From positions 1,178,001 through 1,242,000 of the forward strand of contig JAPXFQ010000483.1 in NCBI GenBank assembly GCA_028564705.1: 64,000 nt of DNA, read 5' to 3'. The notes beneath the pieces were generated by a model. It was given only the letters and a program-made list of their open reading frames with translations. It did not search any database and was not told the DNA's origin. The DNA comes from Apricaphanius iberus. Taxonomy: Eukaryota; Chordata; Actinopteri; Cyprinodontiformes; Aphaniidae. The position numbers were made by a program, and so were the translations under genes. Shown here in pieces: positions 770 through 57,195 of the stretch (position 1 is its first letter; each line of letters starts with the position of its first letter).

Positions 770-893
770 ATGTGATGGACTGGCGACCTGTCCATGGTGT
801 ACCCCGCCTCTCGCCCGTTGACAGCTGGAGATAGGCACCAGCCCCCCTGTGACCCCTTGAGGAATAAGCGGTTCGGAAAATGGATGGATGGAT
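770..893 (+). mobile_element. short LINE/SINE 3' tail with (GGAT)n end
   Basis: A 124-bp fragment of a very common fish repeat starts near GGACTGGCGACCTGTCC and ends in ATGGATGGATGGATG. It is flanked by a perfect 11-bp duplication, GTCATAAAGTG, at 759-769 and 894-904. That proves it is a discrete target-primed insertion, severely 5'-truncated. GATG-type tails are known from fish Rex3 (RTE) elements; the family name is from memory and unverified. It lies inside the endogenous retrovirus, so it is younger than that element. Confidence 0.75.
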
Positions 894-1421
894 GTCATAA
901 AGTGTTACATTCTAATCAGGCAAAAATAAAAAACAAAAGTTTTAACAGACAGTATTGTCATCATCATTATCATAATCAGAAGAAATGGAGACATCAGAAT
1001 AACAGAATAAGAACAGATGAAAACACTTCTTTGTTGTTTGGAATAAATGAACAGCATTGATCATCAAAATAAAACGAATACCACATTTTTCAGCTAATAA
1101 CATGTCTAATGTAATTCTGTTTTGGAAAGTTGTTCATGAACTGCTTCAAAACCATCACGACTGTAGTTGTAATTTTTGGACATTATAATAGATGTACATT
1201 TTTATTAATATCACCGGCAAATTGAATATTCTCATCAGCAATATAAATTGAGTCAGATTCTTCAGGGGCTATTGATGTTTTAGCTCTGTGATGATTAGAT
1301 GTCCTGGTCTGTAGTGTCAAAATCAGTAAACATACATAGTTACAGGCATAATTAAGTTTAGTATGTAAACTTGCAGTAAAAGGTATTAACAGAACTTACA
1401 AACATTTTACCTTTAGTTGCT

Positions 1422-11929: not shown

Positions 11930-12529
11930 TGGGTCGGATAAAGTTCAGTTGCATTCACACCGGACTTGCTCAGCACCAGGGCTTATATGAAGTAGCCCCA
12001 AAAAATCCCTTCAGCAGGGTCTTGGTTTCATTTGTTAGGTGCACACCAGAGCTTGCTGGTTTGTATTCACACCAGTGCAGAAGGTCCGGATGTAGAGAGG
12101 AAACAAATGATGGTGCATTTACACCTGACAGAAACTTGGTTGGACTGGGGACAAAAATTGTAAAAATTTTGCTGTTTTAGCTGGTGCCGAATTCACATTA
12201 CTCATTGTCAAAAAAACCAAGGCTTTATTTCCAACACATTTACCTTCCTGCCTGTGGTGTCACTGTAGAGGAGCTGCACTTCTGAGAGTGGCAGAGGACA
12301 CTGTCTGTACACTGAAATCTAAACAAACTTGGAGTGTCAGCAGACTGTAGAGGTTTTAGGATTGCTCAGTTATGTTTGGCAAAAGTGCCAGATCAATAGT
12401 GCTACGGCAGCAACTCAGGATGAGGAGGCAAAAGACCATTGAGAAATCAGTTTTTTTACACAAGGCAGCTGAGACGGCTCCATATGAGGCGGTGTGCAAT
12501 GCGTAGGGGTGCCTGCAACGTCACAGCAC
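11930..12529. other. left flank of the Tx1 insertion, possible DNA-transposon relic
   Basis: Several TTCACACC/TTTACACC blocks (11950-11960, 12070-12080, 12115-12125) recur on the far side of the LINE near 22930-22940. Since 12529 and 22720 were adjacent before the LINE inserted, this stretch and 22720-24060 are probably one older element. No inverted terminal repeat was fixed. Confidence 0.35.
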
Positions 12530-12719
12530 AAAGGTCCTTATAAAGGGAGAGGAGCTAAGATGGCGGAGTGAGAAGCGGCCCTTTTGCAGGTTTTGTTAAA
12601 AAAAGTATTTTTTGTGCTTAGTTAGTATATTTATATGCAGCAACTTTCAAACACTTTTAGGACTAAACCGTATTATTCTTTGTTTTTTGTTTTTTTTTGC
12701 TGATTTTTTTTCCCAAGAA

Positions 12720-13790
12720 CAGTGGCGGCTGGTGGAATATTCTCCAGAGGGTGTTATGATTATGATGGTTCAATGTTTTTTTTTATTTTGTTTTTTTTTA
12801 CCTAACCAATTACAGGGTAGCTGTGAATTAATCCTGACTAATTAACATTCCAAATATGACTTAAAGAACAACAATTTGCGGTGTAAAGGGACAAATCCAA
12901 CTGCCATAGCTCTTTGTCATTAAATAAAGGAGCGATTAATAGATTGTTTTATCTTTTAGCCAGTTGCTAAGGCAAATTAATTGGCTAACATTTTCTGCAT
13001 TTAAAGCTAACTGTTTCTCAATCATTTTGGACAACCCTGATCATCCCTAAATGGGACTATCCTACGACAACAGAATGATTTTAGTCAGAGGCTTCAACAG
13101 TTTTGCTAGAACAAACTGCTACTGTAGAGGAGGAAACACTGAGCTGTCTATAGAGGTTCTGGTTCAGGATGGGATCACTGTTAACACTGGGAGAACCTGC
13201 CAGAGCTCCACCTAAAGCCATTCAGAGTATGAGAAGATGTGGTGAAGAAAAGACTGTTATATTTCTATTGTTCTTTATTATTTCCAAAAAAGCTGCTGAT
13301 ACAGCTTTGGGTGATATAAATGTGAGGAGGGAGATGATATGTGTGATCTCATGTGAAATATAAGAACAAATGCAAGGTAAGGTGGAAATAACCAAAACAT
13401 ATGAATAAACTTAATGTTTGGATATCGGCAGCTGTGTTAAATATTAAATAAATCAAATGTAATATAGACTTCGTAATAAAATGTCACAATTCCCCTTTTC
13501 CCAAAATGTGAACACTCAGTAAACAAACTCTCAATCTAAACAATAGGACTACATGCTCTTATTGTGAAGTTGCGCGTCTACACATCTACTCTCGCTATGT
13601 GCTAACTATTAGCAGTAATTTAAGTCTGAAAACATAACTTAAACTGAACAATGCAAATTTTTTAACGCAGCGGTACCTTACTATGAAATGTACTGAAGCT
13701 ATACAGTGACCCAACATGCATAATTCCACATTAATACAGCGCTTTTTACTTTTGTTTTACTGCTTATTGGCATTTATATTTAGCTGATGA
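12720..13790 (+). mobile_element. hAT-like composite repeat, copy 1 (uninterrupted)
   Basis: The copy starts CAGTGGCGGCTGGTGG at 12720 and soon passes into a sequence shared with 49027-57190: ATTACAGGGTAGCTGTGAAT, TTGGACAACCCTGA, CCTGCCAGAGCTCCAC and ATAAATGTGAGGAGG all recur in order. Copy 2 is the same sequence opened by two transposons, so this copy provides the empty sites at 13481-13485 (ATGTC) and 13639-13642 (TTAA). A third, reversed fragment lies at 31480-31610. It encodes nothing recognisable; the TAGGGCTGTCAA start of copy 2 suggests hAT. The right end was not fixed. Confidence 0.6.
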
Positions 13791-14414
13791 TCAGGTCCGA
13801 GCTATTATACCTCAAGCTTCTTCTGCTATGTTTTTCTCTCAAACGGTATTGCTTTGAGTGATATAACAAAACCATTATTTTTTTATTTCTGTATTTTTTT
13901 TCTCTTTTCGTTTCTCTCCAACTCCTGTGGTTTGTCGCTACCCGTGTTCCTGCTGTAGGCAGGGAGATACATATCTGTGGCTGTACGTCTCCGAGGGCAA
14001 TCATCATCCAATTTGGGATGCGAACCGTCCCAGACAAAGTTTGGAAAAAAATCGCAGAATGCGCAGGCGTGTACTGAAATGCATATTTGCTTCATAGAAG
14101 ATTCCCCCAAAGAAGACAGGGAAACTCATTCTAAGGCCAACAGTACAGGAAGCCAGGAAGAAGAAAAAGAGCGTTTCTGAAAGAAGGCTACGCTATGACT
14201 GATAACTGTCGGGTGGATCCTGATTAAGTAGCCTTTTTAACACATATCAGGTACTGTTATTAGTTTAATCGTTCTTACGAATGTTCAGACACTCTAAGGG
14301 TTGCTGCTATAAATGCTAATGTTGAATTTTGTTGGAAACACATTAGCTACTCATTCCTCAGCATCACTTTCTAACTGCTTTATTATCTAGCGAATACTGC
14401 CTTTTTTTTCTTTG

Positions 14415-14615
14415 AATGCAAGGGGATTACAGAACAATGTAAAATCTGGGGCAGTTTTTCTTTTTTGTAAGGAGCAAAAGAATAATTTATATTTTTCAAG
14501 AGACTCATTCAGTGGAGGTGGATACAAATGTTTGGAAACAGCAATTGGGAGATTTTGCTTTTTTCAGTCATGGAACACATTCAGCTAGAGTGATGATCCT
14601 GTTTGGTCTAGAAAA
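14415..14615 (+). pseudogene. Tx1/L1-like LINE endonuclease remnant
   Basis: The reading frames give LNARGLQNNVKSGAVFLFCK and, after a frame change, QETHSVEVDTNVWKQQLGDF and FFSHGTHSARVMILF. These are the N-terminal motifs of an L1/Tx1 endonuclease ('NARGL', 'FLQETHS', 'FSHGTxSxGV'). The catalytic GDFN and SDH motifs are lost: after 14620 the sequence jumps to an A-rich run and then to the linker region (NKLVVNNFSIDSQGQINEEI) at about 14640-14740, so a large internal deletion removed the rest. Confidence 0.7.
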
Positions 14616-14757
14616 ACAAAACAAACAAAAAAGAAAATGAATAAACTAGTTGTTAATAACTTTAGCATTGATAGCCAAGGTCAAATAAATGAGGAAATAA
14701 GACATTTTTATCATAAGTTGTATGAAACCAACTTTTCAGTCGATGATTGTCAAAACA

Positions 14758-14882
14758 TCCATCCATCCATTTTCTAAACCGCTTAATCCTCAAGGGGTTG
14801 CGGAGTGGGCTGCTGCCTATCTCCAGCTGCCAACGGGCGAGAGGCGGGGTACACCCTGGACAGGTTGCCAGTCCATTGCAGT
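14758..14882 (-). mobile_element. short LINE/SINE 3' tail with (CATC)n, nested in Tx1
   Basis: This is the same family as 770-893, here reversed. CATCCATCCATCCATTTTCT begins at its left edge and GGACAGGTTGCCAGTCC lies near the right. It is flanked by an imperfect duplication, GATTGTCAAAACA at 14745-14757 and GATTGGCAAACA at 14883-14894. It splits the Tx1 coding region between the linker and the polymerase. Confidence 0.7.
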
Positions 14883-14894
14883 GATTGGCAAACA

Positions 14895-15775
14895 TTTTTT
14901 GAAAAAAATAAGCCATTTAATATAATAATTGACGAGTCTTTTAGGCAACACATGGAAGATAAGCTTAGAATCGAAGAGCTAGATATAACAATTGGGAATA
15001 TGTCAAAAGGAAAATCCCAAGGACTGGATGGATTAACAGTGGAATTTTATATTCATTTTGGGAGTTATATTGGAGTACTGCTTTATAATGCCTTATTGGA
15101 ATGCATCTCATCTGGGCATCTGTCCTCTACCATGAAAACGGGTGTCATCACACTAATTCCTAAACCCAATAAGGACACATTATTGCATTTGGAAACCAAT
15201 TACATTATTATCTAATGATTACAAGTTGCTAGCTCATGTTTTTTCCAATAGATAGGATATTGGGTTATCCAACATAGTCGATGAATGCCAAGAGTAGAAA
15301 CATACATAACCAAACTAGACTGATTCTGGACCTGTTATACTAAAGAGACTATATCACAACAGTGAGTTATGTATCGTTTATGGACTTCTTCAAGGCTTTT
15401 GACACAATTGAACACCCCTTTTTGTTGAAAGCGTTTAAGTTTTTGGGCTTCGGAAGTAAATTCTGCAACATGGTTGAAATGCTGTACACTGACATCAGTA
15501 GCACGGTCTCCTTGAACCCAGGAATGACTCCTGGATTCAGCAAGAAATTCAGAAGAAATTCAGCAAGGATGCCCTATTTCCCCAAAGCTTTTTTATATTG
15601 GAAACTCAACTGTTAACACTATGAATCAAAAATTCTAACGACATACAAGGAATATTCAATTTTAATAAAGAGTTCAAAATAAGTAAATATGCTGATGATA
15701 CATCTATCTTTTTTGAAAGATAAATAAATGGGAGAAAAATCTCTCAGTATTATCTCAACCTTCTCCAAAGGATCA
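14895..15775 (+). pseudogene. Tx1/L1-like LINE reverse-transcriptase fragment
   Basis: Frame pieces give MSKGKSQGLDGLTVEFYIHF, then GVITLIPKPNKDT, then VSFMDFFKAFDTIEHPFLLK (first catalytic-aspartate region, normally 'DxxKAFD'), and, after frame changes, a short 'YADDTSIFLKD'-like segment near 15690-15715. The last has the YADD catalytic core. It breaks off at FSKGSG (about 15760-15776) and resumes at 21657 with GLSFNIKKCELLPIHTSS, showing that the two parts were contiguous. Several stops and shifts make it non-functional. Confidence 0.75.
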
Positions 15776-16143
15776 GGGGTCTCATTTCAGAATCAGAATC
15801 AGAATCGGTTTTATTGCCATTGTTTGAGAACAAGTTCACAAACTAGGATTTTTTTTCGGTACAATTGTGCACATAAACATTTAACATAATACAAATAAAA
15901 TAAATAAAAATGAAAAGAATGAGCTATAAGGCTAAAATCTTTATAAATATTATAATCTGTATGTATATAAAAGAACTATGAAAAGATAAACATCCTTTTT
16001 AACATGAGAACAGCAGCAGGGTTCCATTCACAGATGTGCAGGTGAATGACAGCAGCAGATCTAAGTGTGATTAGACCACACAGTGCAGTAAAATAAAGTT
16101 ACGTAGTGCAGATGGTTCTATCCTACATGGGTCTTTAACTGAA

Positions 16144-17523
16144 CTATCGGGTCTTGTTATTGTTCATGAGTCTGATGGCGGAGGGGAAGAAACTGTTCAG
16201 GTGGCGGGAGGTGTGGTTCTGGATGGACCGTAGCCTCCTGCCTGAGGGGAGGAGGGAGAATAGTCGGTGTCCAGGGTGAGAAGAGTCAGCTGTGATCCGA
16301 CCCACACGCCTCCGGGTCCTGGAGGAGAACAGGTCCTGGAGGGATAGGAGCCTGCAGCCAATCACCTTCTCAGCAGCACGCACGATGCGCTGCAGTTGGT
16401 GTTTGTCCCGGTCTGCGGCGCCGGGGAACCACACGGTGATGTAGCAGGTGAGGATGGACTCGATGATGGCCGTGTAGAACTGCACCAGCATCTCGGTCGG
16501 CACCTTGAGTTTCCTCAGCTGCCGCAGGAAGTACATCCTCTGCTGGGCCTTCTTGATGAGGGAGCTGATGGTTGGCTCCCACTTGAGGTCCTGGGTGATG
16601 GCGGTGCCCAGGAAACGGAAGGAGTACACGATGGAGATGGGGGTGGGAGAGTCCATCAGGGTGAGGGGATACGGTGGGGCTGTGACTTTCCTGAAGTCCA
16701 TGATCATCTCCACTGTCTTCTGGGCGTTCAGCTCCAGGTTGTTATGACTGCACCAGGAAGCCAGCCAGTCCACCTCTCTCCTGTAGGCGGACTCATCACC
16801 GTCTGAGATAAGTCCGATGAGGGTGGTGTCGTCCGCAAACTTGATCAGCTTTACGGACTGGTGACTGGAGGTGCAGCAGTTTGTATACAGCGAGAAAAGC
16901 CAGGGGGAGAGTACACAGCCCTGAGGAGTCCCAGTGTTTGTAGTCCGATTGTCCGAGACAATCTTCCCCAACCGCACGTGCTGTCTCCGGTCCGTCAGGA
17001 AGTCAGTGATCCACCTGCAGAGGGAGTCGGGCACGCTGAGCTGGTAGAGCTTGTCTCGTAGCAGTCCAGGGAGGATGGTGTTGAAGGCAGAGCTGAAGTC
17101 CACAAACAGGATCCTGGCGTAGGGTCCTGGGGAGTCCAGATGCTCCAGGATGAAATGGAGGGCCAGGTTCACTGCATCATCCACAGACCTGTTGGCTCTG
17201 TAGGCGAACTGCAGTGGGTCCAGGAGGGGGGCGGTGATGTCCTTGAGGTGGGGCAGAACCAAGCGCTCAAATGACTTCATGACCACAGACGTCAATGCCA
17301 CCGGCCTGTAGTCATTAAGTCCTGTGATCCGTGGCTTTTTGGGGACAGGGACGATGGTGGAGGTTTTGAAGCAGGACGGCACGCGACAGAGCGCCAGGGA
17401 GGTGATGAAAATGTCCGTGAACACGGGGGCCAGCTGATCCGCGCAGTGTCTCAGGGTGGAGGGGGAGACACCGTCCGGCCCGGGGGCCTTCCTCCTGTTC
17501 AGCCTCAAGAACTGTCGGCGCAC
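16144..17523 (-). CDS. Rex1-type reverse transcriptase (uninterrupted part)
   Basis: 459 codons form an open reverse transcriptase that copies element RNA into the target site during target-primed reverse transcription. Motifs in order: RKAPGPDGVSPSTLR (about residue 11), LNDYRPVALTSVVMKSFERL (about 69), LFVDFSSAFNTILP (about 138, first catalytic Asp), NTGTPQGCVLSPWLFSLYTN (about 196), KLIKFADDTTLIG (about 225, catalytic FADD), and the C-terminal AQQRMYFLRQLRKLKVP and HPGHRLFSLLPSGRRLRS. The M at 17523 is only the first ATG after a stop at 17664-17662; the true protein begins far upstream with the endonuclease in the same frame. The plus strand also shows long open frames here, which are shadows. 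Confidence 0.85.
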   Translation of the reverse strand: MRRQFLRLNRRKAPGPDGVSPSTLRHCADQLAPVFTDIFITSLALCRVPSCFKTSTIVPVPKKPRITGLNDYRPVALTSVVMKSFERLVLPHLKDITAPLLDPLQFAYRANRSVDDAVNLALHFILEHLDSPGPYARILFVDFSSAFNTILPGLLRDKLYQLSVPDSLCRWITDFLTDRRQHVRLGKIVSDNRTTNTGTPQGCVLSPWLFSLYTNCCTSSHQSVKLIKFADDTTLIGLISDGDESAYRREVDWLASWCSHNNLELNAQKTVEMIMDFRKVTAPPYPLTLMDSPTPISIVYSFRFLGTAITQDLKWEPTISSLIKKAQQRMYFLRQLRKLKVPTEMLVQFYTAIIESILTCYITVWFPGAADRDKHQLQRIVRAAEKVIGCRLLSLQDLFSSRTRRRVGRITADSSHPGHRLFSLLPSGRRLRSIQNHTSRHLNSFFPSAIRLMNNNKTR

Positions 17524-17661
17524 ATCCTCCTCCTGGATGGAGAGGGCAGGGGGGGAGGAGGGGGGGTCTGAGGAGTCCTTTGATGAAGTGCTGGGGTCGT
17601 TGATGGTTGGGGTGATGGTGAGGGGAGCAGAGGTGTGAGGAGCAGACGGCTGTTCAAAGCG

Positions 17662-19079
17662 TCAGTAGTGTGTATTCAGGCCCTGGGCGAGAGTCCGGTC
17701 GTTCAGGGCCTGGGGGGCTTTGGGCTTGTAGTTTGTGAGAGCCCTCAACCCCCTCCACACGGCTGCAGAGTCATTGGAGCTAAAGTGTTCCTGTATACGG
17801 TTGGAGTACACAGATTTTGCTCTTCTCACTTCACTGCTGAAGTGGTACTTTGCTCGTCTGTATGTACTCCGGTCCTCGCTCCGCCGCGCTACTTCCTTCT
17901 CCTCACGTATGTGCCGGAGCTTGGGTGTGAACCAGGGCTTGTCATTATTATAACAAATCCTGGTGCGCGTTGGGATGATGCGCGTCTCATTGAACTGAAT
18001 GTATGAGGTCACAGTGTCCGTATACTCGTCCAGATTGTCCGTGGCTGCTCCAAACGCTCCCCAGTCTGTCGTCTCCCAACATGAGCGCAGCTCCTCCACA
18101 GCTTCAGAGGTGTATTTCCTTGTTGTTATCACCGCAGGCTTGGCCAATTTCAGTCTCTGTCGGTATGAGGGAATTAGGTGCACCATCACGTGATCTGATA
18201 GTCAGAGGGCAGCGCGCGGCACAGCATGATACGCTCTGCTGACTGTAGTGTAGCAGTGATCCAACGTGTTCTCCTCTCTGGTCGGGCATTTAATGAACTG
18301 TCTATACTTTGGTAATTCCTGGCTCAGGTTTCCCTTGTTAAAGTCACCAAGCACGATAACAAGAGAGTCCGGAAAAGACCGCTCCGCATGTAATATCTGG
18401 CCTGCAAGCGTGCGCTGAGCCTCGCGCACATCCGCGCTCGGCGGAATGTAGGCAGCCACCAGAATAAATGAAGCGATCTCACGCGGTGAATAAAAAGGCT
18501 TACAGTGAATGAAAAGATATTCCAGAGAAGGAGCGCAGTGTTGGGAGATCACAGTCACATCCGTGCACCAGCTGCTGTTGATGTAGAAGCAAACGCCACC
18601 GCCTTTTGTTTTGATGGAGAGCTCCGCGTTGCGATGAGGAGATGGAAGCCTTCCAGGTGAAGCACGCTGTCCGGGACACTCGCGCTTAGCCACGTCTCCG
18701 TGAAGCACAAAACACAAGACGAGGAAAAGTCCTTGTTACTTCTCATCAGCAGCGCTAGTTCGTCCATCTTGTTGGGAAGTGAGCGGACGTTTGAGAGAAA
18801 GATGCCAGGTAAAGGCATGCGCGTTCCCCGTCTGCGCAGGCGGACGAGTGAACCCGCTCGCTTTCCACGGCGCCGTTTCCCTCTTTTGGTCAAAAAATGG
18901 ACCAGGTCCGCAGCTGATGCTAAAAAAACTGGTAATAAGTCCGTAGGGGTGGTAGTTCTAATGTCCAGAAGCTCCACGCGGGTATAAGAGCACGCAGACG
19001 AACAGTTAACGCACAAGAACAAACAAAACAGAGCGCACGAAAGCACCACGGCTGCCATCCTCGGCGCCATCTTCAACAA
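17662..19079 (-). pseudogene. Rex1-type endonuclease and linker (two stops, one frameshift)
   Basis: Frame pieces 18555-19079, 18202-18717 and 17662-18189 encode the N-terminal part of the Rex1-type protein. It starts near MLKMAPRMAAVVLSCALFCL and shows LPGIFLSNVRSLPNKMDELA, CVLCFTETWLS (catalytic Glu), GGGVCFYINSSWCTDV, VIVLGDFNKGNLSQELPKY (catalytic Asp/Asn) and PTREENTLDHCYTTVS. A frameshift near 18600-18650 separates the first two pieces. A TGA at 18201-18199 falls where a glycine codon normally precedes LSDH, and another TGA at 17664-17662 separates it from the polymerase. The last two pieces and the polymerase are in the same frame. Confidence 0.75.
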
Positions 19080-19964
19080 AGTTGAAGTAAAACTTTGTCC
19101 AGAATCCTTACCAAAAATGTACTTAAGCTCAGCAATTTTTTTTGTTTACTTACGCCTAGTTTCTGATCTGTCACACTTGGAGTACGCATAGCTGCATGCA
19201 ATTTCCTCTTTATAAATCAGACCCTTCCTAGAAATGTGCTCAGCTGTTTCTGGATCATATCCCTCCTCCTACACACCCACTTTCTGCCATAAATTGTCAA
19301 CACAAAGTGTCTAGTGAATATTCTGCATAGCCTCAAGATGGCTAATATTAGGCGTTTCACGGGTGACCATGGCAACCGAGAGGCAGAGAAAGACAGCTGC
19401 AGGCATGCGGACGCAGAGAAACCTGTTTTATTTCAATCAATCAATGTTGATCTATATAGAGCTTTACTGATCCAAAGGCTTCACATAAACAGACAAACCA
19501 TAGCAACTTAATCTCTGAACATAACCTCCTCCAGACCGGGTTATGTTCTGGGTATGTAGCGTGGCACGAACTTTTAAATGACAATCCTTTGGACGTGGAA
19601 GCACAGATTATACTATATTTTGTTAAAATAACGTCAGTTTTGTCAAACAAAAACTGTAGGAGAAAGCCCATTACATATAACAAACAATGAAAGAACTATT
19701 TCACAAACATATCAGTAAAATGTAAGAGTATTTCAAATAGGATTACAGAACACATTACATGCAGCTACATAAAATAGTCCTGCATTGTGAAATAATGACT
19801 ACTGCCAAGTACATTAAAATGCCATTAACTGGCAAAAATGATAGGTGTTTAATTGTAATATATTAGTATATATTGTAAACTTCAATTTAACAAAGTCACT
19901 GGAAGAAAGATGATGTAATGCCCCCAGGAAAGCCATGAAAGACTGGTCGGCCTTTACAGAGCCA

Positions 19965-20800
19965 ACTCCTCAGGTGGGGTGACGGGAGATGGTGGTGGCC
20001 CCCCATCAGTTAGACGGACCTCAACTTTCTTTTGATTCGCTACATGATAGGAAGAATGCACAAAAAATTATTAATATCCCTACATCTCTCCAATAATTAT
20101 TTGATTTCATTCTTACCTTTTTGGAAAATCTTTTTTGTTTCATTTGACTTGAGAAAGAGTTATTTTGGATCCAGAAGGATTACATCCACTTAAGTTAGAG
20201 GTCAATATATGTCAATGTACAACATTATTGTTATCTCAACAAATTGGTGGCAAAAGAAAGTACATTTTAAATGATGATTCAACATACAGGAACGCATTTT
20301 AAATTATACATCATATCCTCCAGCACCACTTGACCTCAACTGGGAATAAGGGGAAGAAAAAGAATAAATAAAAATGAAGATAGTTGAGAGTTAGTATATT
20401 TAAGGCTGATGTCTCCAATAAGGCTGAGCCAGTAAGAATACGTGTATACCCATATATAGAATAAGTGTAACGTTTTAACCTGAAGAGGGCACTCGCCTGA
20501 TGGTTTTTTGGTATAAAATTAATATTTTTATACTAAAATATACTAAAAAATGAAAAATAATAAAGAGACATGTAAACCATACTATTAGGCACTAATTTAT
20601 ACAGCTTTTCATCAAAAAAAAAGTTGATTGGGGGTGATTTGAACTTTAAACTCACACACACTGTTATTTTTTGCCAAGCCAACATTCTTTCTTTAGCTTT
20701 ATTGCTAGTTTATTCATAATGATTGGTTTGAATTCATCATAGGTCAGCATTAGTACTTCCAACTCCACTTCTTTGAGGTATTCTGGTCTTTTTTTCTCTT
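19965..20800 (-). pseudogene. Myb/SANT-like DNA-binding protein remnant of the Harbinger-like element
   Basis: On the minus strand 20790-20645 gives KEVELEVLMLTYDEFKPIIM and, after a shift, NKAKERMLAWQKIT. This matches the Myb_DNA-bind_5-type helix pattern ('ELEVLLxxYxxxKxxI...KERExAWQxIAxxVN') of fish transposon-associated SANT proteins. About 700 bp further on, near 20010-19975, GGPPPSPVTPPEELAL followed by a stop resembles the C-terminal tail of such proteins. In PIF/Harbinger elements this protein binds the terminal repeats and brings in the nuclease. Multiple shifts make it non-functional. Confidence 0.45.
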
Positions 20801-21656
20801 TAGTTTCCTTTGTGACTCTTGAACTCGGTGATCCATTGAGAGGGTCTTTATGTTTCAGGGTTTACCAGGAGTAGGTTTATTAATCAGATTCTTATCAGGT
20901 GTTCTGGAACTAACATTCTCTGGCTAAGCAGGATTTGGGTTGATTAACCAAGACTTCAGCATTTGACGAGTCTGGCCCCTGGAATCAAAGCAAATTAAAA
21001 CAAATAATACTAAATCACAATAGAACTTAAATTTAAGCACTCTGAGATATTTAAAGACTAGCAAAAAGTTGTGCTTCAAAACTATTTTTAAAAAGTTTTG
21101 ATAAAAATATTGATTTGGGGTCATACAAATAAATGGAAGAGCTGCAGGTGACACAGCATTGTTGCAGCAATGAGCCAGACATAAAGAATCTTCAATGAGT
21201 GCTAGCAGATCCATTGTGCAGAATTATGCTGGGATGCTGCAGTATATTTGTTCTTCACATATGCACCAATACATTCAATTGCTATAAAATCTGAAGACAC
21301 ACATATGAACATATCCTTAAATGCAACGTATTTTTAATCAAATTCTCATTTTTATTCTCAGTTCCTATAGACGGGACAGGGGAGAAGTTTGTGTGTTGGT
21401 TATGTGTTCATCTGTGTGTGCAATGCTCTACAAATCTGAAAATGTGGCTTAAATTCACAATTTTGGTATCCCTCCTACTGCGCTGTCAGTGCCCTCTGTG
21501 TCCAAAAAGTGCGTAAGCAAGCTCCTTAGTGTGCTTAAAGTTGCACACATTTTCTCAGCGCGTTTTTCTCTATAAATCCCAAACTTTGCGTGTAAAGTTG
21601 CTTGCGTAGTTTTCAGACCCTGTTTTGTGCGTATGCAAGCTTTATAAATGAGACCC

Positions 21657-22706
21657 TGGTCTATCTTTTAATATTAAAAAATGTGAACTACTCCCGATTC
21701 ATACTAGCTCTCACTCCTCAATTGCTTCAGTTAGTTGAATCTGATGTCAAATATTTAGGGCTGACAATATCTAAAAATTTAATCAAAAGACAACACACTA
21801 ATATTTCTAATCATATCATAGAAATGAATAAATCACTTAGCCATTGGTTAACCAGCGACCTTACTATTTTTGGCAGAAACATCCTAACTAAAGCTGAATG
21901 CAACTCCAAATTGATTTATCCTTGTCACTCTCTATATATCTTCTCTTAAACATTAATAATGCTAATATAGTCATTTTCCAATTTTTGTGGAGGAATAAAA
22001 CCCACTACATTAAAAGATCTAAGCTTGTGAAAGATTATAATAAAGGTGATATCAAAGCGCCAGATTTTGAATCTATTATTGGCACCCTTATAATTAAATG
22101 GATAAAATCTTGTCTGCCTCAGCCAGACTCTATGTGGTTCCACATTCCATGATCCTTGTTTAATAAAATAGGTGGATTAGACTTTATTTTGAAATGTGAT
22201 TTTGAAAAATCCCACTCAAGCTAACTTACAAAAACAGTTTCTGCATTTTTGTAAAATATGTTTCCAAAACTTTTCTCCTCATAGGGTAATAATTCTCCAC
22301 ATATAGGGTAATAACACTTAATCGAACCTCAATTTTCAAGAATGACTGGTTTAACAAAAAGATTATATATATTTTTCTAATGATTCTAAGTAATTTTTTT
22401 CTTCGCTTAAAATGAGAAAAAGCAAATATGCCCAACAAATCAAACAGGATAATGTCTGTCTCCTGCTTTTCTTAATTGGGATTTATTTTTTTGTTTCAGT
22501 GCTCCTTTTCATTCAATATTTAAATGCATGCCAAATTTATCTTTTTTGGTTTTATTGTATTGTATGTTTTTTCATATTCATAATTTCTCTATTGCTATAT
22601 TTCCTGTACTTTTGTAATGTTCCTAACTTTCATTTGTATTATTATTACTGTTATCCTCTTTGAGTCTGTATCTTCAACTGTTTTGATAAAAACAAAAAAC
22701 AAAATA
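21657..22706 (+). pseudogene. Tx1/L1-like LINE C-terminal coding block and 3' UTR
   Basis: It continues the polymerase interrupted at 15776: GLSFNIKKCELLP, VKYLGLTISKNLIKRQHTNI, IFGRNILTKAECNSKLIYP, then FWRNKTHYIKRSKLVKDYN and KWIKSCLPQPDSMWFHIP. This is the thumb and C-terminal region of L1/Tx1 proteins. Frameshifts lie near 21950 and 22150. From about 22400 a T-rich 3' UTR leads to an A-rich end (AAAAACAAAATAAAAG) abutting the target duplication at 22707. Confidence 0.75.
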
Positions 22707-22719
22707 AAAGGTCCTTATA

Positions 22720-23119
22720 CAGGCTTTGAGCAAGGTATGTAAAACATCAATGATCTATCCAGCATACGTGGTTGGTTAGATTGTATTTACCCAGGATGCA
22801 CTGCAAAGTTGTCCACTTGCTGTTTCTGGTGTGATCCCAGGTCCCTTTGCATCTCACTTTTCAAACTGAGACATATGTTTTTATGCAGACTAGAGTTTGC
22901 TTTTTTGGTCCAATGAGAGTCTAACTGTGCATTCACACCTCCCCAAACAAACCCGACTTTCTGGGCAAACGAACTAGAGTTCGATTCAAAATATCAGTCT
23001 TTGTCAGACACGTGACCTGCTCACCCCCTGGCGCCATGTTGGGGGACAGCATTTTGCGTTGCTAGTGGGAACTTGCAGTAGATCTATTGTGGAAGCTGAA
23101 ATTGAAGTCGAAGAAGCAC
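22720..23119. other. right flank of Tx1 insertion
   Basis: This non-coding stretch contains GCATTCACACCTCCCC near 22935 and GGCGCCATGTTGGGGGAC near 23030, the latter resembling a 5' leader. It probably belongs with 11930-12529 and with the SWIM/YqaJ remnant that follows. Confidence 0.35.
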
Positions 23120-23466
23120 ACTCGAGATGCTAACATGGATAAGAAGAATAAGGACGAACACATCCCTTACAGGGATAAATTTATGAAGGAGGCTAGAGAT
23201 TGATATTTGCAGAAATGGTCCACAATCAGAGATGTAGAGCCATATGAACTCAATGGAAAGAAATGGAGCTCCTATGTTGTTACTGCCTCCCACTACTGCA
23301 TTGGACATAACTAACAATCTTGTGTTTGGTTTCAGCACATACACGTCAGCAATTTAAAAACTCCAAATCACTGGATGCATACAGACATTTTAGACAGGGG
23401 TGGGTACAAGAATTGCTCACATTTCAACCGCAGGAAAGCAAAAACACGGTCTCTGCCAAGGTGAGC
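23120..23466 (+). pseudogene. SWIM/YqaJ-type transposon-associated gene, exon remnant
   Basis: Near 23285-23345 the plus strand reads LPPTTALDITNNLVFGFSTY followed by TSA. After a one-base shift come QFKNSKSLDAYRHFRQGWVQ, ELLTFQP and NTVSAKV. This resembles the N-terminal region of multi-copy fish proteins that carry a SWIM zinc finger and a YqaJ-like recombinase domain ('FKxYKSLEAYxxFxxGWVQ'). The identification is from memory. The open segment ends at AAG/GTGAGC (23459-23466), a good 5' splice site, so this may be an exon. The following exons were not found. Confidence 0.45.
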
Positions 23467-24479
23467 TAAGCTTGGTTTAAGCTTTTGTTGTTTTGCGTGA
23501 TTCTTTGTGCACTTTGTGTCCCACAGGTTTAACAAGATTTTCATTTTAAGTAAATCACAAAATACATTTTAAAACAAGAAATATAAGGGTCTATGTTTCT
23601 TGTTATTATGACACACCAGGTTATCTTATAAATCATGTTTCTAAAAGTTTTCTGGGTCTCTAATGAGCAGAGGCCATTCACCATCTCTTTGTTAGCGCTC
23701 CCATTTTCTATCTGAAACTTTGTTTCCAAGTGGGAAACCGAAAAAATCTTATGCTGTTGGCCAGTTTATGATTTCTGCTGTGGTGTAGCCTGGCATGGCA
23801 GCCCTTCAGACAACATGAGTGTACAAGTTTTCTTTTAAAAGTTTAGACCCTACACACTCAAAGCGAGTGAAGCTTCCTTGTTTTATACTCCCATGCATCC
23901 CATCATGCAATGCGCTTACAATACTCGATACGTCATCTGACGAAGACCGATGCAAGTCATGGGTGAATGCACTCAGAGTTCATTTTAAGCAAACTAAACA
24001 AGCATGGTGTGAATACCCCTACAATGTTACCTCAGGAATGATGTAATCAAAAAAGACACATTTTGTCAAATCCTTGTATTAGTTTTACAGTCGATGTGTT
24101 AAGATTCTGGTACCACATTTGAATTAGATTTTCCCACATTTGCTTTAAATTTTATGATAAAAAGCTTAAAATAAAGAGAATAACCATCAAAAAAGGGTCA
24201 GCATTTTATGAAGTATAATTTCAATAAGATCTCTGCTTTCAACCGAGCCAAATTATTACTACATGACTTTTTTTAGGTAACAACTACTGTTACAAACAAC
24301 TTTTTTTTAATTCCAGGACTGAGTGACTAAATACACAATATATTTAAACCCACGAAATTTAAATGAACTAATAAAAACATTATGCTAGCGTACAGAAACA
24401 TGAAACTATTGTGATTCCATTTCTTAGTAGTACTGATGTACTTCTGAAACACTTCCAATGCTTATATACACAGGCTGAC
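23467..24479. other. unannotated interval
   Basis: It is AT-rich with no supported gene. GTGAATGCAC and GTGTGAATACCCC near 23965-24015 echo the TTCACACC blocks upstream and may mark the far end of the same old element. Confidence 0.3.
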
Positions 24480-31272: not shown

Positions 31273-31820
31273 CAGTTGTTGTTGTTGAGCACTCAGACGG
31301 GATGGAAAAACCATCAGTCAGGAAATGTACCATATGATGAAAAAGGAAAAAGGAAAGCACCAACAGGACACAGTGGTATTGATTGTGGAGTTAAAAACTA
31401 AATTCTATTAATCTCCTTTATTTCATGAAAAAAGCGATGCGGCAATTCCCTTCACACTAAAAATGGTAGGTTTTTTAGTCATATTTAGGAATGTTAATTA
31501 GTCCGGATTAATTCACAGCTACCCTGTAATTAATTAGGTAAAAAAAATTATAGTTTGACAACCCTAATATCTATCATCATCATAGCCCCCCTGGAGAAAA
31601 TTCAGTGTAAGGATGAATAAAGTCCAGAAATATTTTTTTTTAAATTCCCGTTACTTTTTTTTAACTTCATCATATGCAAAAATCTGTATTTTCTAATATA
31701 AAGTAAACTTGGTAATTAGGATAAATGAATTTAAATATTTTTTTGCAGACATTGGGACAAAACTTCCTAAAATGTTCAGTCTGGAACAGAACAGAAATAT
31801 AATTTATTGTCTCACAGTTC

Positions 31821-48960: not shown

Positions 48961-50016
48961 CCTAATATCTAAAAATGATGTACAGCCTTCAGAATATAAA
49001 AAAAAATGTAACGGTTAATGTATATTAGGGCTGTCAAATGATTACAAATTTTCATCTAATATATCACAGGGTAGCTGTGAAATAAGTATGATTAATAAAC
49101 TTCTTTTTAAAGGATGTAAATAGATCCATAGAACTTTTGTTTTGAACTCCTCAATCACATTTATACATGATTCTTTTAACCTATTCATCTTTAAGCCAGC
49201 TGGTAAGGCAAATTACTGGATAGGCTTTTTAGTTTGTAAAGTTGACTGTTTCTTAATGATATTGGACAACCCTGAGCATCCCCTTTACAGGACTATCCTG
49301 CAACAAGGCTTAAACAGTTTTGCTGCAACACAGACTGCTACTGTAGTGAAGGAAACACTGAGCTATCTATTTAGGTACTGATTCAGGGTGAGATCACAGA
49401 GAGTACCTGCCAGAGCTCCACTTAAGGCCATTCAGAATATGACAATATATGCTTCGGAGAAAAGGCTGTTCTATTTCTTGTGCCACATAGCTGCTGATTC
49501 AGGTGTGAATGGTATAAATGTGAGGAGGAAAATTGTGTGTTCTCTGGTAAAAAATAGTTACAGTAGAGCTAATCAAAATATAGGAATACACTTAATATTC
49601 AGATAGCAGTTGTGTTAAAGATCACATGAATAAAATTTAATATAGACTTAGTAATCATATGTCCAGTGTTTCCCACAGATTTGAAAGCAATGTGTGGTGG
49701 TGGGGTTACCGCACGCTTGTGACTATAGTTAACTTTCTAAAGATTGCGCAATCGCTTGTTTGCCAAGGTTCGGGACCTGCAGTAACATCAACACTATGAA
49801 ACTATTGTATTCAGAATAAAATGTTTCATAGCACTTTTTAATCTGTGATTGTGTGTTAAAAGCATACTTGCCAACCTTGAGACCTCAGAATTAGGGAGAC
49901 ATTCAAACAGGCTGGGGAGTTTAAAAAAGAAATATTATATACTTTTAAATACTTGAATTTTAATTAGAATTTAACAGTATTTATTTATTTTACAAAATAA
50001 CATTCCACAACAATAA

Positions 50017-56720: not shown

Positions 56721-57195
56721 TATTGTATATAAACGATATTAGAGTCTGACTCCACGTGCTTGCTGTGATAATGCCCCTTATATAACATATCGAACGGGGA
56801 GTTCCACAAAGGGTAGGAGGGTCTTAGAGAGGGTCAGGTGAATATAAAGGCGTAACATACAGAAGTGATGGGAATGCAAATTTCTTTATGGTGGATTTTG
56901 ATATACATAGGACAGATTTTCAGACAGATTTAGGATAACAAGTTTTTTTGAGTGTGCTATAGAATGGTACTGTGTGCCTGGGAAAAGCATAATAACCCCA
57001 CTTTAACGGATTAATGTGCATTTTAACACAGCTGTAACTCACAAGGAAATGGACTGAATCTTTCCAGTGAACAAATTGGATAAACCAACATAAATAAGGC
57101 CCATTTTTACTCTTTGCACATGGGGGCTAATGGCTATTAGCAAGACCGAGCCAACAGCTCATGTGTATGGAATCCAGCAGTGGTGTGGACTTGAG

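What the first reader, a model, noticed from the sequence alone, without database searches (positions are those of the whole stretch)
12530..22719. A 10-kb four-level nest inside one Tx1/L1-like LINE, closed by a 13-bp duplication
AAAGGTCCTTATA is duplicated exactly at 12530-12542 and 22707-22719. The LINE's coding blocks (endonuclease, linker, polymerase, C-terminus) become colinear once three insertions are removed. One insertion is a Harbinger-like transposon that carries a Rex1-type LINE 11 bp inside its end. Relative ages follow directly: flanking element older than Tx1, Tx1 older than Harbinger, Harbinger older than Rex1.
Basis: partly seen in the sequence, partly recalled or inferred. 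Interest (0 to 1): 0.75.

Follow-up and report, generated by a model that had tools for sequence, protein, structure and literature searches.

The report
Seven nested jumping genes, fish genome
In what is almost certainly a fish genome, seven mobile DNA elements landed inside one another, four levels deep, and related copies in the same genome show landing sites still empty, which fixes the order of events; it is clean but ordinary genome archaeology.

Summary
AAAGGTCCTTATA at 12530 and 22707 is a real target-site duplication: in 20 of 20 fetched copies of the surrounding repeat the flanks run together across one copy. Counting alone would not show it: 22 of 100 shuffles hold as many 13-mer pairs. 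Inside is one L1-superfamily LINE, colinear with a fish ORF2 protein. LINE relatives are unbroken at the 14755 insertion (7 of 7) and at the 15777 insertion (11 of 12). The latter is a CWG-type Harbinger relative with a full-length Rex1-type LINE exactly 11 bp inside its end.

So seven elements, depth four.

Median distance to fetched relatives agrees with the order: flank 0.252, LINE 0.146, Harbinger 0.128, Rex1 0.036, although the LINE and Harbinger ranges overlap and H2's relatives are more distant than H1's. Clade labels (Tx1 or L1; Rex1) were not settled. An ordinary, well-resolved nest.

The parts
12112..12529 (+). left part of the old flanking repeat (level 1)
   Evidence: repeat copies extend from about 12112
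12530..12542 (.). target-site duplication, copy 1
   Evidence: exact; single copy in 20 of 20 fetched relatives
12543..12719 (+). LINE 5' region
   Evidence: 76% to relative L002, which also begins here
12720..13995 (+). insertion 1: high-copy repeat starting CAGTGGCGG, 3' part deleted together with LINE ORF1 sequence; joint at CCGAG (13991-13995)
   Evidence: start at query 18-23 in most long rows; 31 of 39 non-self rows end at 13995; 10 fetched relatives continue past this point
13996..14604 (+). LINE: ORF1 C-terminal part and start of ORF2 endonuclease
   Evidence: residues 1-72 of P0001; L002 match at 14088-14165
14605..14754 (+). LINE: linker after an internal deletion of ORF2 residues 73-377; ends with the 11-bp duplication TGATTGTCAAA (14744-14754)
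14755..14881 (-). insertion 2: short retroelement tail with (GATG)n end
   Evidence: 7 of 7 LINE relatives uninterrupted here; 88-95% to its nearest separate copies
14882..15776 (+). LINE reverse transcriptase; begins with duplication copy TGATTGGCAAA, ends with CAG before H1
   Evidence: RVT_1 fragment, P0001, L063
15777..15787 (+). H1 left tip GGGTCTCATTT
   Evidence: 11 of 12 listed relatives have a matching end
15788..19073 (-). Rex1-type LINE, full length, one frameshift and two in-frame stops
   Evidence: frames; RVT_1; 27 of 39 non-self rows end exactly at 19073; 9 of 9 fetched copies leave the element there
19074..19087 (.). 14-bp filler at the Rex1 5' joint, with an inverted copy of adjoining H1 sequence
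   Evidence: direct sequence; absent from H1 relatives and from Rex1 copies
19088..19497 (+). H1, left block
   Evidence: 16 of 20 fetched relatives match at least part of it
19498..20978 (+). H2: second Harbinger-type element inside H1, left end deleted; Myb/SANT-like remnant on the minus strand at 20536-20861
   Evidence: own repeat, 2011 first-look candidates, long rows run 19496 to about 20959; ends in 8 fetched copies; not present as a block in 20 of 20 H1 relatives
20979..21656 (+). H1, right block and right end
   Evidence: 26 of 39 non-self rows stop exactly at 21656, the rest within 313-324 of query
21657..22372 (+). LINE ORF2 after the polymerase core
   Evidence: P0001 to residue 967
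22373..22706 (+). LINE 3' region and A-rich tail, after a 0.66-0.72 kb deletion
22707..22719 (.). target-site duplication, copy 2
22720..22992 (+). right part of the flanking repeat

Best explanation
A four-deep nest of transposable elements in a fish genome. An old repeat (level 1) received an L1-superfamily LINE with a 13-bp duplication (level 2). The LINE later received three insertions: a high-copy repeat at 12720, a short retroelement tail at 14755 and a CWG-targeting Harbinger-type transposon H1 at 15777 (level 3). H1 received a second Harbinger-type element H2 and a full-length Rex1-type LINE (level 4). Deletions, two of them across a joint between insert and host, then removed parts. 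Shown: boundaries, relatives without the insert at the LINE, insertion 2, H1 and Rex1 steps, the missing stretches, and the order of divergence. For insertion 1 and H2 relatives without the insert exist, but a deletion has removed part of the exact site. Inferred: target-primed insertion of the LINEs, cut-and-paste insertion of H1 and H2, microhomology as the cause of the deletions, and the clade names. The order of H2 relative to Rex1 is not known.
For: Flank relatives read through with one copy of the 13-mer in 20 of 20 fetched loci. ORF2 colinear. LINE relatives uninterrupted at insertion 2 (7 of 7, of which L065/L067 and L066/L068 look like near-duplicates) and at H1 (11 of 12 by coordinates). 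H1 ends and CWG triplets. Rex1 ends. H2 as a repeat of its own. Median K2P 0.252, 0.146, 0.128, 0.036 in nesting order.
Against: The two copies of the 13-mer are identical although the LINE is 12-23% from its fetched relatives; if each copy had gathered 8-10% change, 26 unchanged sites would have probability 0.06-0.11. LINE and H1 distances overlap (0.119-0.230 and 0.091-0.159). H2's relatives (80-88% in the long rows) are more distant than H1's, although H2 lies inside H1. The H1 triplets in the window are CAG and, only if the right end is taken one base short, CTG; both ends agree in only 6 of 11 relatives. H2's right triplet is CWG in only 4 of 8 copies. No transposase was found.
Confidence: 0.92

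Rival explanations
1. The LINE-like blocks are two or more separate LINE insertions that happen to lie in line, and the 13-mer is a chance repeat.
For: A 13-mer pair at this range is not rare (22 of 100 shuffles have two or more pairs); large pieces of the LINE are missing, and an A-rich stretch at 14613-14638 could be taken for the tail of a first copy.
Against: The flank repeat reads through with one copy of the 13-mer in 20 of 20 fetched relatives; ORF2 residues follow in order; the A-rich stretch is coding sequence shared with P0001 and with relatives; relatives carry the missing stretches in place.
Confidence: 0.03
2. H1 and H2 are not two elements: 19498-20978 is the original interior of a longer H1, and the common short H1 copies are deleted or rearranged derivatives.
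For: H2 also has a GGCCC end beside CWG in 4 of 8 copies, so it is of the same general kind; its relatives are more distant than H1's, which is odd for a later insert.
Against: Fetched H2 copies share with one another about 50 bp further left and about 45 bp further right that are not H1 and then end; eight H1 relatives have 130-158 bp of other sequence at this place; 0 of 20 H1 relatives hold the block.
Confidence: 0.12
3. Part of the nest is an assembly artefact joining unrelated repeats.
For: High-copy elements are common places for misassembly; the genome is in 1979 contigs.
Against: The joints examined make biological sense: duplications, family ends and short shared sequence; the contig is 3.6 Mb long.
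Confidence: 0.03

Closest known systems
Medaka dmrt1bY promoter: Rex1 nested in the P-element-like transposon Izanagi (PMC5789577; passages read)
   Same: A Rex1 LINE inside a DNA transposon in a teleost, with sequential insertions.
   Different: There the nest was co-opted as a regulatory region and the outer element is P-like; here the outer element is Harbinger-like, the nest is deeper, and no function is suggested.
NuwaI group of the PHIS/Harbinger superfamily (PMC4482050; passages read)
   Same: CWG duplications, ends beginning GGG, described mainly from bony fish.
   Different: No transposase found here; H1 relatives look non-autonomous, and H2 is missing its left end.
L1-superfamily LINEs of fish (P0001 and other hits; human L1 ORF2p in PDB)
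   Same: Same domain order and colinear ORF2; human L1 ORF2p is a weak sequence match (E 0.018).
   Different: This copy is broken by stops, frameshifts, deletions and three insertions.
Interruption analysis of nested repeats in mammals (PMC2517846; outline and abstract read)
   Same: Uses elements that interrupt other elements as a source of evidence.
   Different: Genome-wide statistics in mammals for a selection question; here a single locus.

Membership tests
L1-superfamily LINE | endonuclease followed by reverse transcriptase in one ORF2, in order | tested here: met
   P0001 alignment; RVT_1 in one fragment, E 2.1e-4, 21.5 bits, under the 29.6 cut-off; P0001 itself has endonuclease and RVT_1 above cut-off
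L1-superfamily LINE | variable-length target duplication and A-rich tail | tested here: met
   13-bp duplication with empty sites; A-rich tail before copy 2
Tx1 clade | grouping with Tx1 rather than L1 in a reverse-transcriptase tree | not tested
   no named Tx1 reference was retrieved; no tree was made
PHIS/Harbinger, NuwaI group (H1) | CWG target duplication | tested here: met
   CWG at 17 of 20 right and 9 of 11 left ends, by my reading with one base of shift allowed on the right; the two ends agree in 6 of 11; in the window CAG and, only with that shift, CTG
PHIS/Harbinger, NuwaI group (H1) | terminal inverted repeat beginning GGG | tested here: met
   GGGTCTCATTTATAAA at both ends of the family
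PHIS/Harbinger, NuwaI group (H1, H2) | DDE transposase | not tested
   no transposase seen among the fragments scanned, but full-length autonomous relatives were not fetched
PHIS/Harbinger (H2) | Myb/SANT-like protein | tested here: inconclusive
   PF13873 E 0.05, 14 bits, under the cut-off 21.7, for a piece read across one frame break; motif recurs in 4 of 8 relatives; none of 4 pieces from relatives matched a Myb model
PHIS/Harbinger, NuwaI group (H2) | CWG target duplication | tested here: inconclusive
   right triplet CWG in 4 of 8 copies; the others are GAG, CTA, CTC, TTG; left ends not seen
Rex1 | endonuclease and reverse transcriptase of the Rex1 clade | tested here: inconclusive
   RVT_1 above cut-off; endonuclease models only under cut-off; full-length fish relatives to 73%; no source in the listing calls a hit Rex1, so the clade name is from recall
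Rex3/RTE-type tail (insertion 2) | 3' tail of (GATG)n after GAA repeats | tested here: inconclusive
   (GATG)n tail present; the paired GAA repeats described in PMC6274825 (passage) are not

The most novel reading that the evidence does not exclude
CWG-targeting Harbinger-type elements repeatedly land in one another and in old LINEs, and later deletions that straddle nest joints strip their ends, so that end-based annotation misses them and undercounts nesting in fish. In addition, the 14-bp filler with an inverted copy of the target at the Rex1 5' joint would show that full-length Rex1-type LINEs can finish insertion by fold-back synthesis without a target duplication.
Probability: 0.12. Interest if true: 0.4.

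Novelty: new member of a known kind. Interest (0 to 1): 0.22.

Why it matters
It is a worked example of transposon stratigraphy in a fish: the order of four layers is fixed by nesting and agrees with divergence from relatives. It also carries a caution: two insert ends that looked missing or misplaced are best explained by deletions across the joint between insert and host.

Tried and rejected
A chance 13-mer could not be rejected by counting but was rejected by the empty sites. A single Harbinger element was judged less likely than two and is kept as a rival at 0.12. I first took 19088 as the base after the Rex1 5' end; the fetched copies moved that end to 19073 and left 14 filler bases. Rfam gave no match at gathering scores in the window. 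The Myb test stayed under the cut-off. A Tx1-versus-L1 tree was not made. Searches with 19100-19420 and 15770-16200 did not complete; for the second I fetched Rex1 3' ends instead, of which 6 of 9 matched and 3 did not.
Full report
Setting. Named protein relatives of its elements are largely from teleosts such as Oryzias and Nothobranchius, so the host is almost certainly a fish (inference).

The 13-bp duplication. AAAGGTCCTTATA is exact at 12530-12542 and 22707-22719. By count alone it is unremarkable: the region has two such non-simple 13-mer pairs, and 22 of 100 shuffles have two or more. Its place is what matters. The left flank (12300-12542) is a repeat: 612 first-look candidates, 40 scored, 41 rows with the window itself, non-self identity 75-81%. 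I fetched 20 of the 40 non-self rows, all from the 28 whose match reaches within 6 bases of the junction; the 12 that end earlier were not examined. The window flanks, joined at one copy of the 13-mer, align through the junction in 20 of 20: 17 with more than 25 bp beyond it, L036 with 25, L032 with 14, L034 with 3, and L031 with gaps there. Relatives read about CACAGATGTCCTCCTTATACAGAC where the window has CACAAAGGTCCTTATA, the LINE, then AAAGGTCCTTATACAGGC. So the window's flank copy already had its own changes when the LINE landed, and both copies keep them.

The LINE. Fish ORF2 protein P0001 (65% identity, 74% of the query) matches in order on the plus strand from 14394 to 22373: residues 1-72, 378 to about 717, and, beyond the large insertion, about 717 to 967 (two alignment pieces run a little way into the insertion, to 15838 and from 21616, and a weak minus-strand piece is the Rex1 polymerase). 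Residues 73-377 are missing at 14604/14613; 7 of 7 relatives L063-L069 keep at least part of them, though L069 has a gap of its own. At 22372 a further stretch is missing: relative L063 has 718 bp between the halves and C194 about 655 bp. Relative L002 begins at the same 5' base. Bottom-strand cleavage would be CTTT/G, acceptable for an L1-type endonuclease (recalled rule).

Insertion 1. Searches with 12700-13810 and 13650-14150 show a repeat that starts at 12720 and whose match to the window stops at 13995, exactly so in 31 of 39 non-self rows (4873 and 2355 first-look candidates, 40 scored each). In 10 fetched relatives the element continues past that point, in 9 with the same next bases and in L079 with later family sequence. 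In relative L002 the LINE has roughly 0.43-0.45 kb of ORF1 that the window lacks (by eye, one relative). The joint carries CCGAG, present in L002 and in 8 of the 10 insert relatives. I read this as a later deletion that removed the insert's 3' end and adjoining LINE sequence (inference). No inverted CAGTGGCGG was found in the roughly 240 bp beyond in one relative, so its superfamily is open.

Insertion 2. Seven of seven LINE relatives (L063-L069; L065/L067 and L066/L068 look like near-duplicates) are uninterrupted. The insert is 14755-14881, flanked by TGATTGTCAAA and TGATTGGCAAA. Its minus-strand (GATG)n tail recalls Rex3 (passage of PMC6274825), without the paired GAA repeats.

H1. The right end is exact: 26 of 39 non-self rows stop at query 317, window 21656, the others between 313 and 324 (1877 first-look candidates). 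In 20 fetched relatives the right block 20979-21656 matches at least in part in 20, the left block 19088-19497 at least in part in 16. Eleven of 12 listed left ends read like GGGTCTCATTTATAAAAC, while the window reads GGGTCTCATTT, Rex1, filler, TAAAAC. Allowing one base of shift on the right, the neighbouring triplet is CWG at 17 of 20 right and 9 of 11 left ends, and equal at both ends in 6 of 11. In the window it is CAG on the left and, only with that shift, CTG on the right. CWG with GGG ends in bony fish is the NuwaI group (passages of PMC4482050). The LINE reads straight through the H1 site in L063. By coordinates, of 13 non-self loci whose match reaches the site 12 have a row beyond it, and 11 of these are uninterrupted (C118, C1732, C1519, C1309, C1748, C1193, C1028, C972, C522, C650, C771); C114 has about 0.5 kb extra, and C227 has no far row. 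Ten of the 11 belong to a more distant branch (68-69%).

H2. Eight H1 relatives have 130-158 bp between the two H1 blocks; the window has 19498-20978 instead. That block is a repeat of its own (2011 first-look candidates, 40 scored); most long rows run from about 19496 to about 20959. Eight fetched copies share about 50 bp further left that is neither H1 nor in the window, and about 45 bp further right, ending near GGCCC. The triplet after that end is CWG in 4 of 8; the others are GAG, CTA, CTC and TTG. The window has GGCCC and then CTGGAATC, and 5 of 8 H1 relatives begin CTGG at that place. I read H2 as a second Harbinger-type element in H1 whose left end was lost together with about 145 bp of H1. 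Against this, its relatives are more distant (80-88% in the long rows) than those of H1. A Myb/SANT-like remnant is suggested (E 0.05, under the cut-off) and its motif recurs in 4 of 8 relatives, but Pfam did not confirm it.

Rex1-type LINE. It occupies 15788-19073 on the minus strand, with one frameshift and two in-frame stops (from the frames) and a full-length relative at 73%. At the 5' end 27 of 39 non-self rows stop at 19073, the rest between 469 and 488 of the query, and 9 of 9 fetched copies leave the element there. At the 3' end 6 of 9 fetched pieces matched, starting at 15785-15792; 3 did not match, their places having been estimated from length. Fourteen extra bases, CAACAAAGTTGAAG, precede H1 and hold ACAAAGTT, the inverse of AACTTTGT just beyond. 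I found no target duplication; one A of H1 is missing. The nearest stretches are 97.9% over 612 bp (L066) and 96-99% at the 5' end.

Ages. Median K2P to the relatives fetched: flank 0.252 (20 loci), LINE 0.146 (9 loci, some near-duplicates), H1 0.128 (20 loci), Rex1 0.036 (7 loci, six of them short). One piece of insertion 1 gives 0.103. H1 is 0.056 from an in-script majority of its relatives over 320 sites. The relatives were the best-scoring ones, so these are low-end distances that bound rather than date the insertions. The order agrees with the nesting, but the LINE and H1 ranges overlap. Twenty-six unchanged duplication sites would have probability 0.06-0.11 at 8-10% change per copy, a mild tension.

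Verdict. The finding is real and its reading is right in outline. It is a kind of locus common in repeat-rich genomes (general knowledge). A teleost precedent for Rex1 inside a DNA transposon is medaka dmrt1bY (passages of PMC5789577). I saw nothing that points to a function.

Noticed in passing
window 22993-23951: A further repeat block (758 first-look candidates, 40 scored, most long rows running about 22993-23951, 74-82% identical) splits the right part of the flanking repeat, which resumes near 23975; either another insert or the interior of a longer member.
   Followed up: partly
window 19074-19087: The filler at the Rex1 5' joint holds an 8-bp inverted copy of the H1 sequence beside it, as if synthesis had folded back.
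   Followed up: partly
L004 (G000:C969:19000-28900): Pieces of the same LINE on the minus strand and of the flanking repeat on the plus strand alternate here, so the two families have met more than once.
   Followed up: partly
G000 C1916, C1354, C1456, C470, C1801, C1256: Six LINE loci, all but one with matches ending at the same few positions, look like copies of one duplicated stretch on small contigs or contig ends.
   Followed up: no
window 49049-49663, 31404-31603, 57021-57114: Other partial copies of the insertion-1 repeat in the window, about 70-77% identical to it.
   Followed up: partly
window 775-895: A copy of the insertion-2 element on the other strand, 90% identical over 122 bp.
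   Followed up: no
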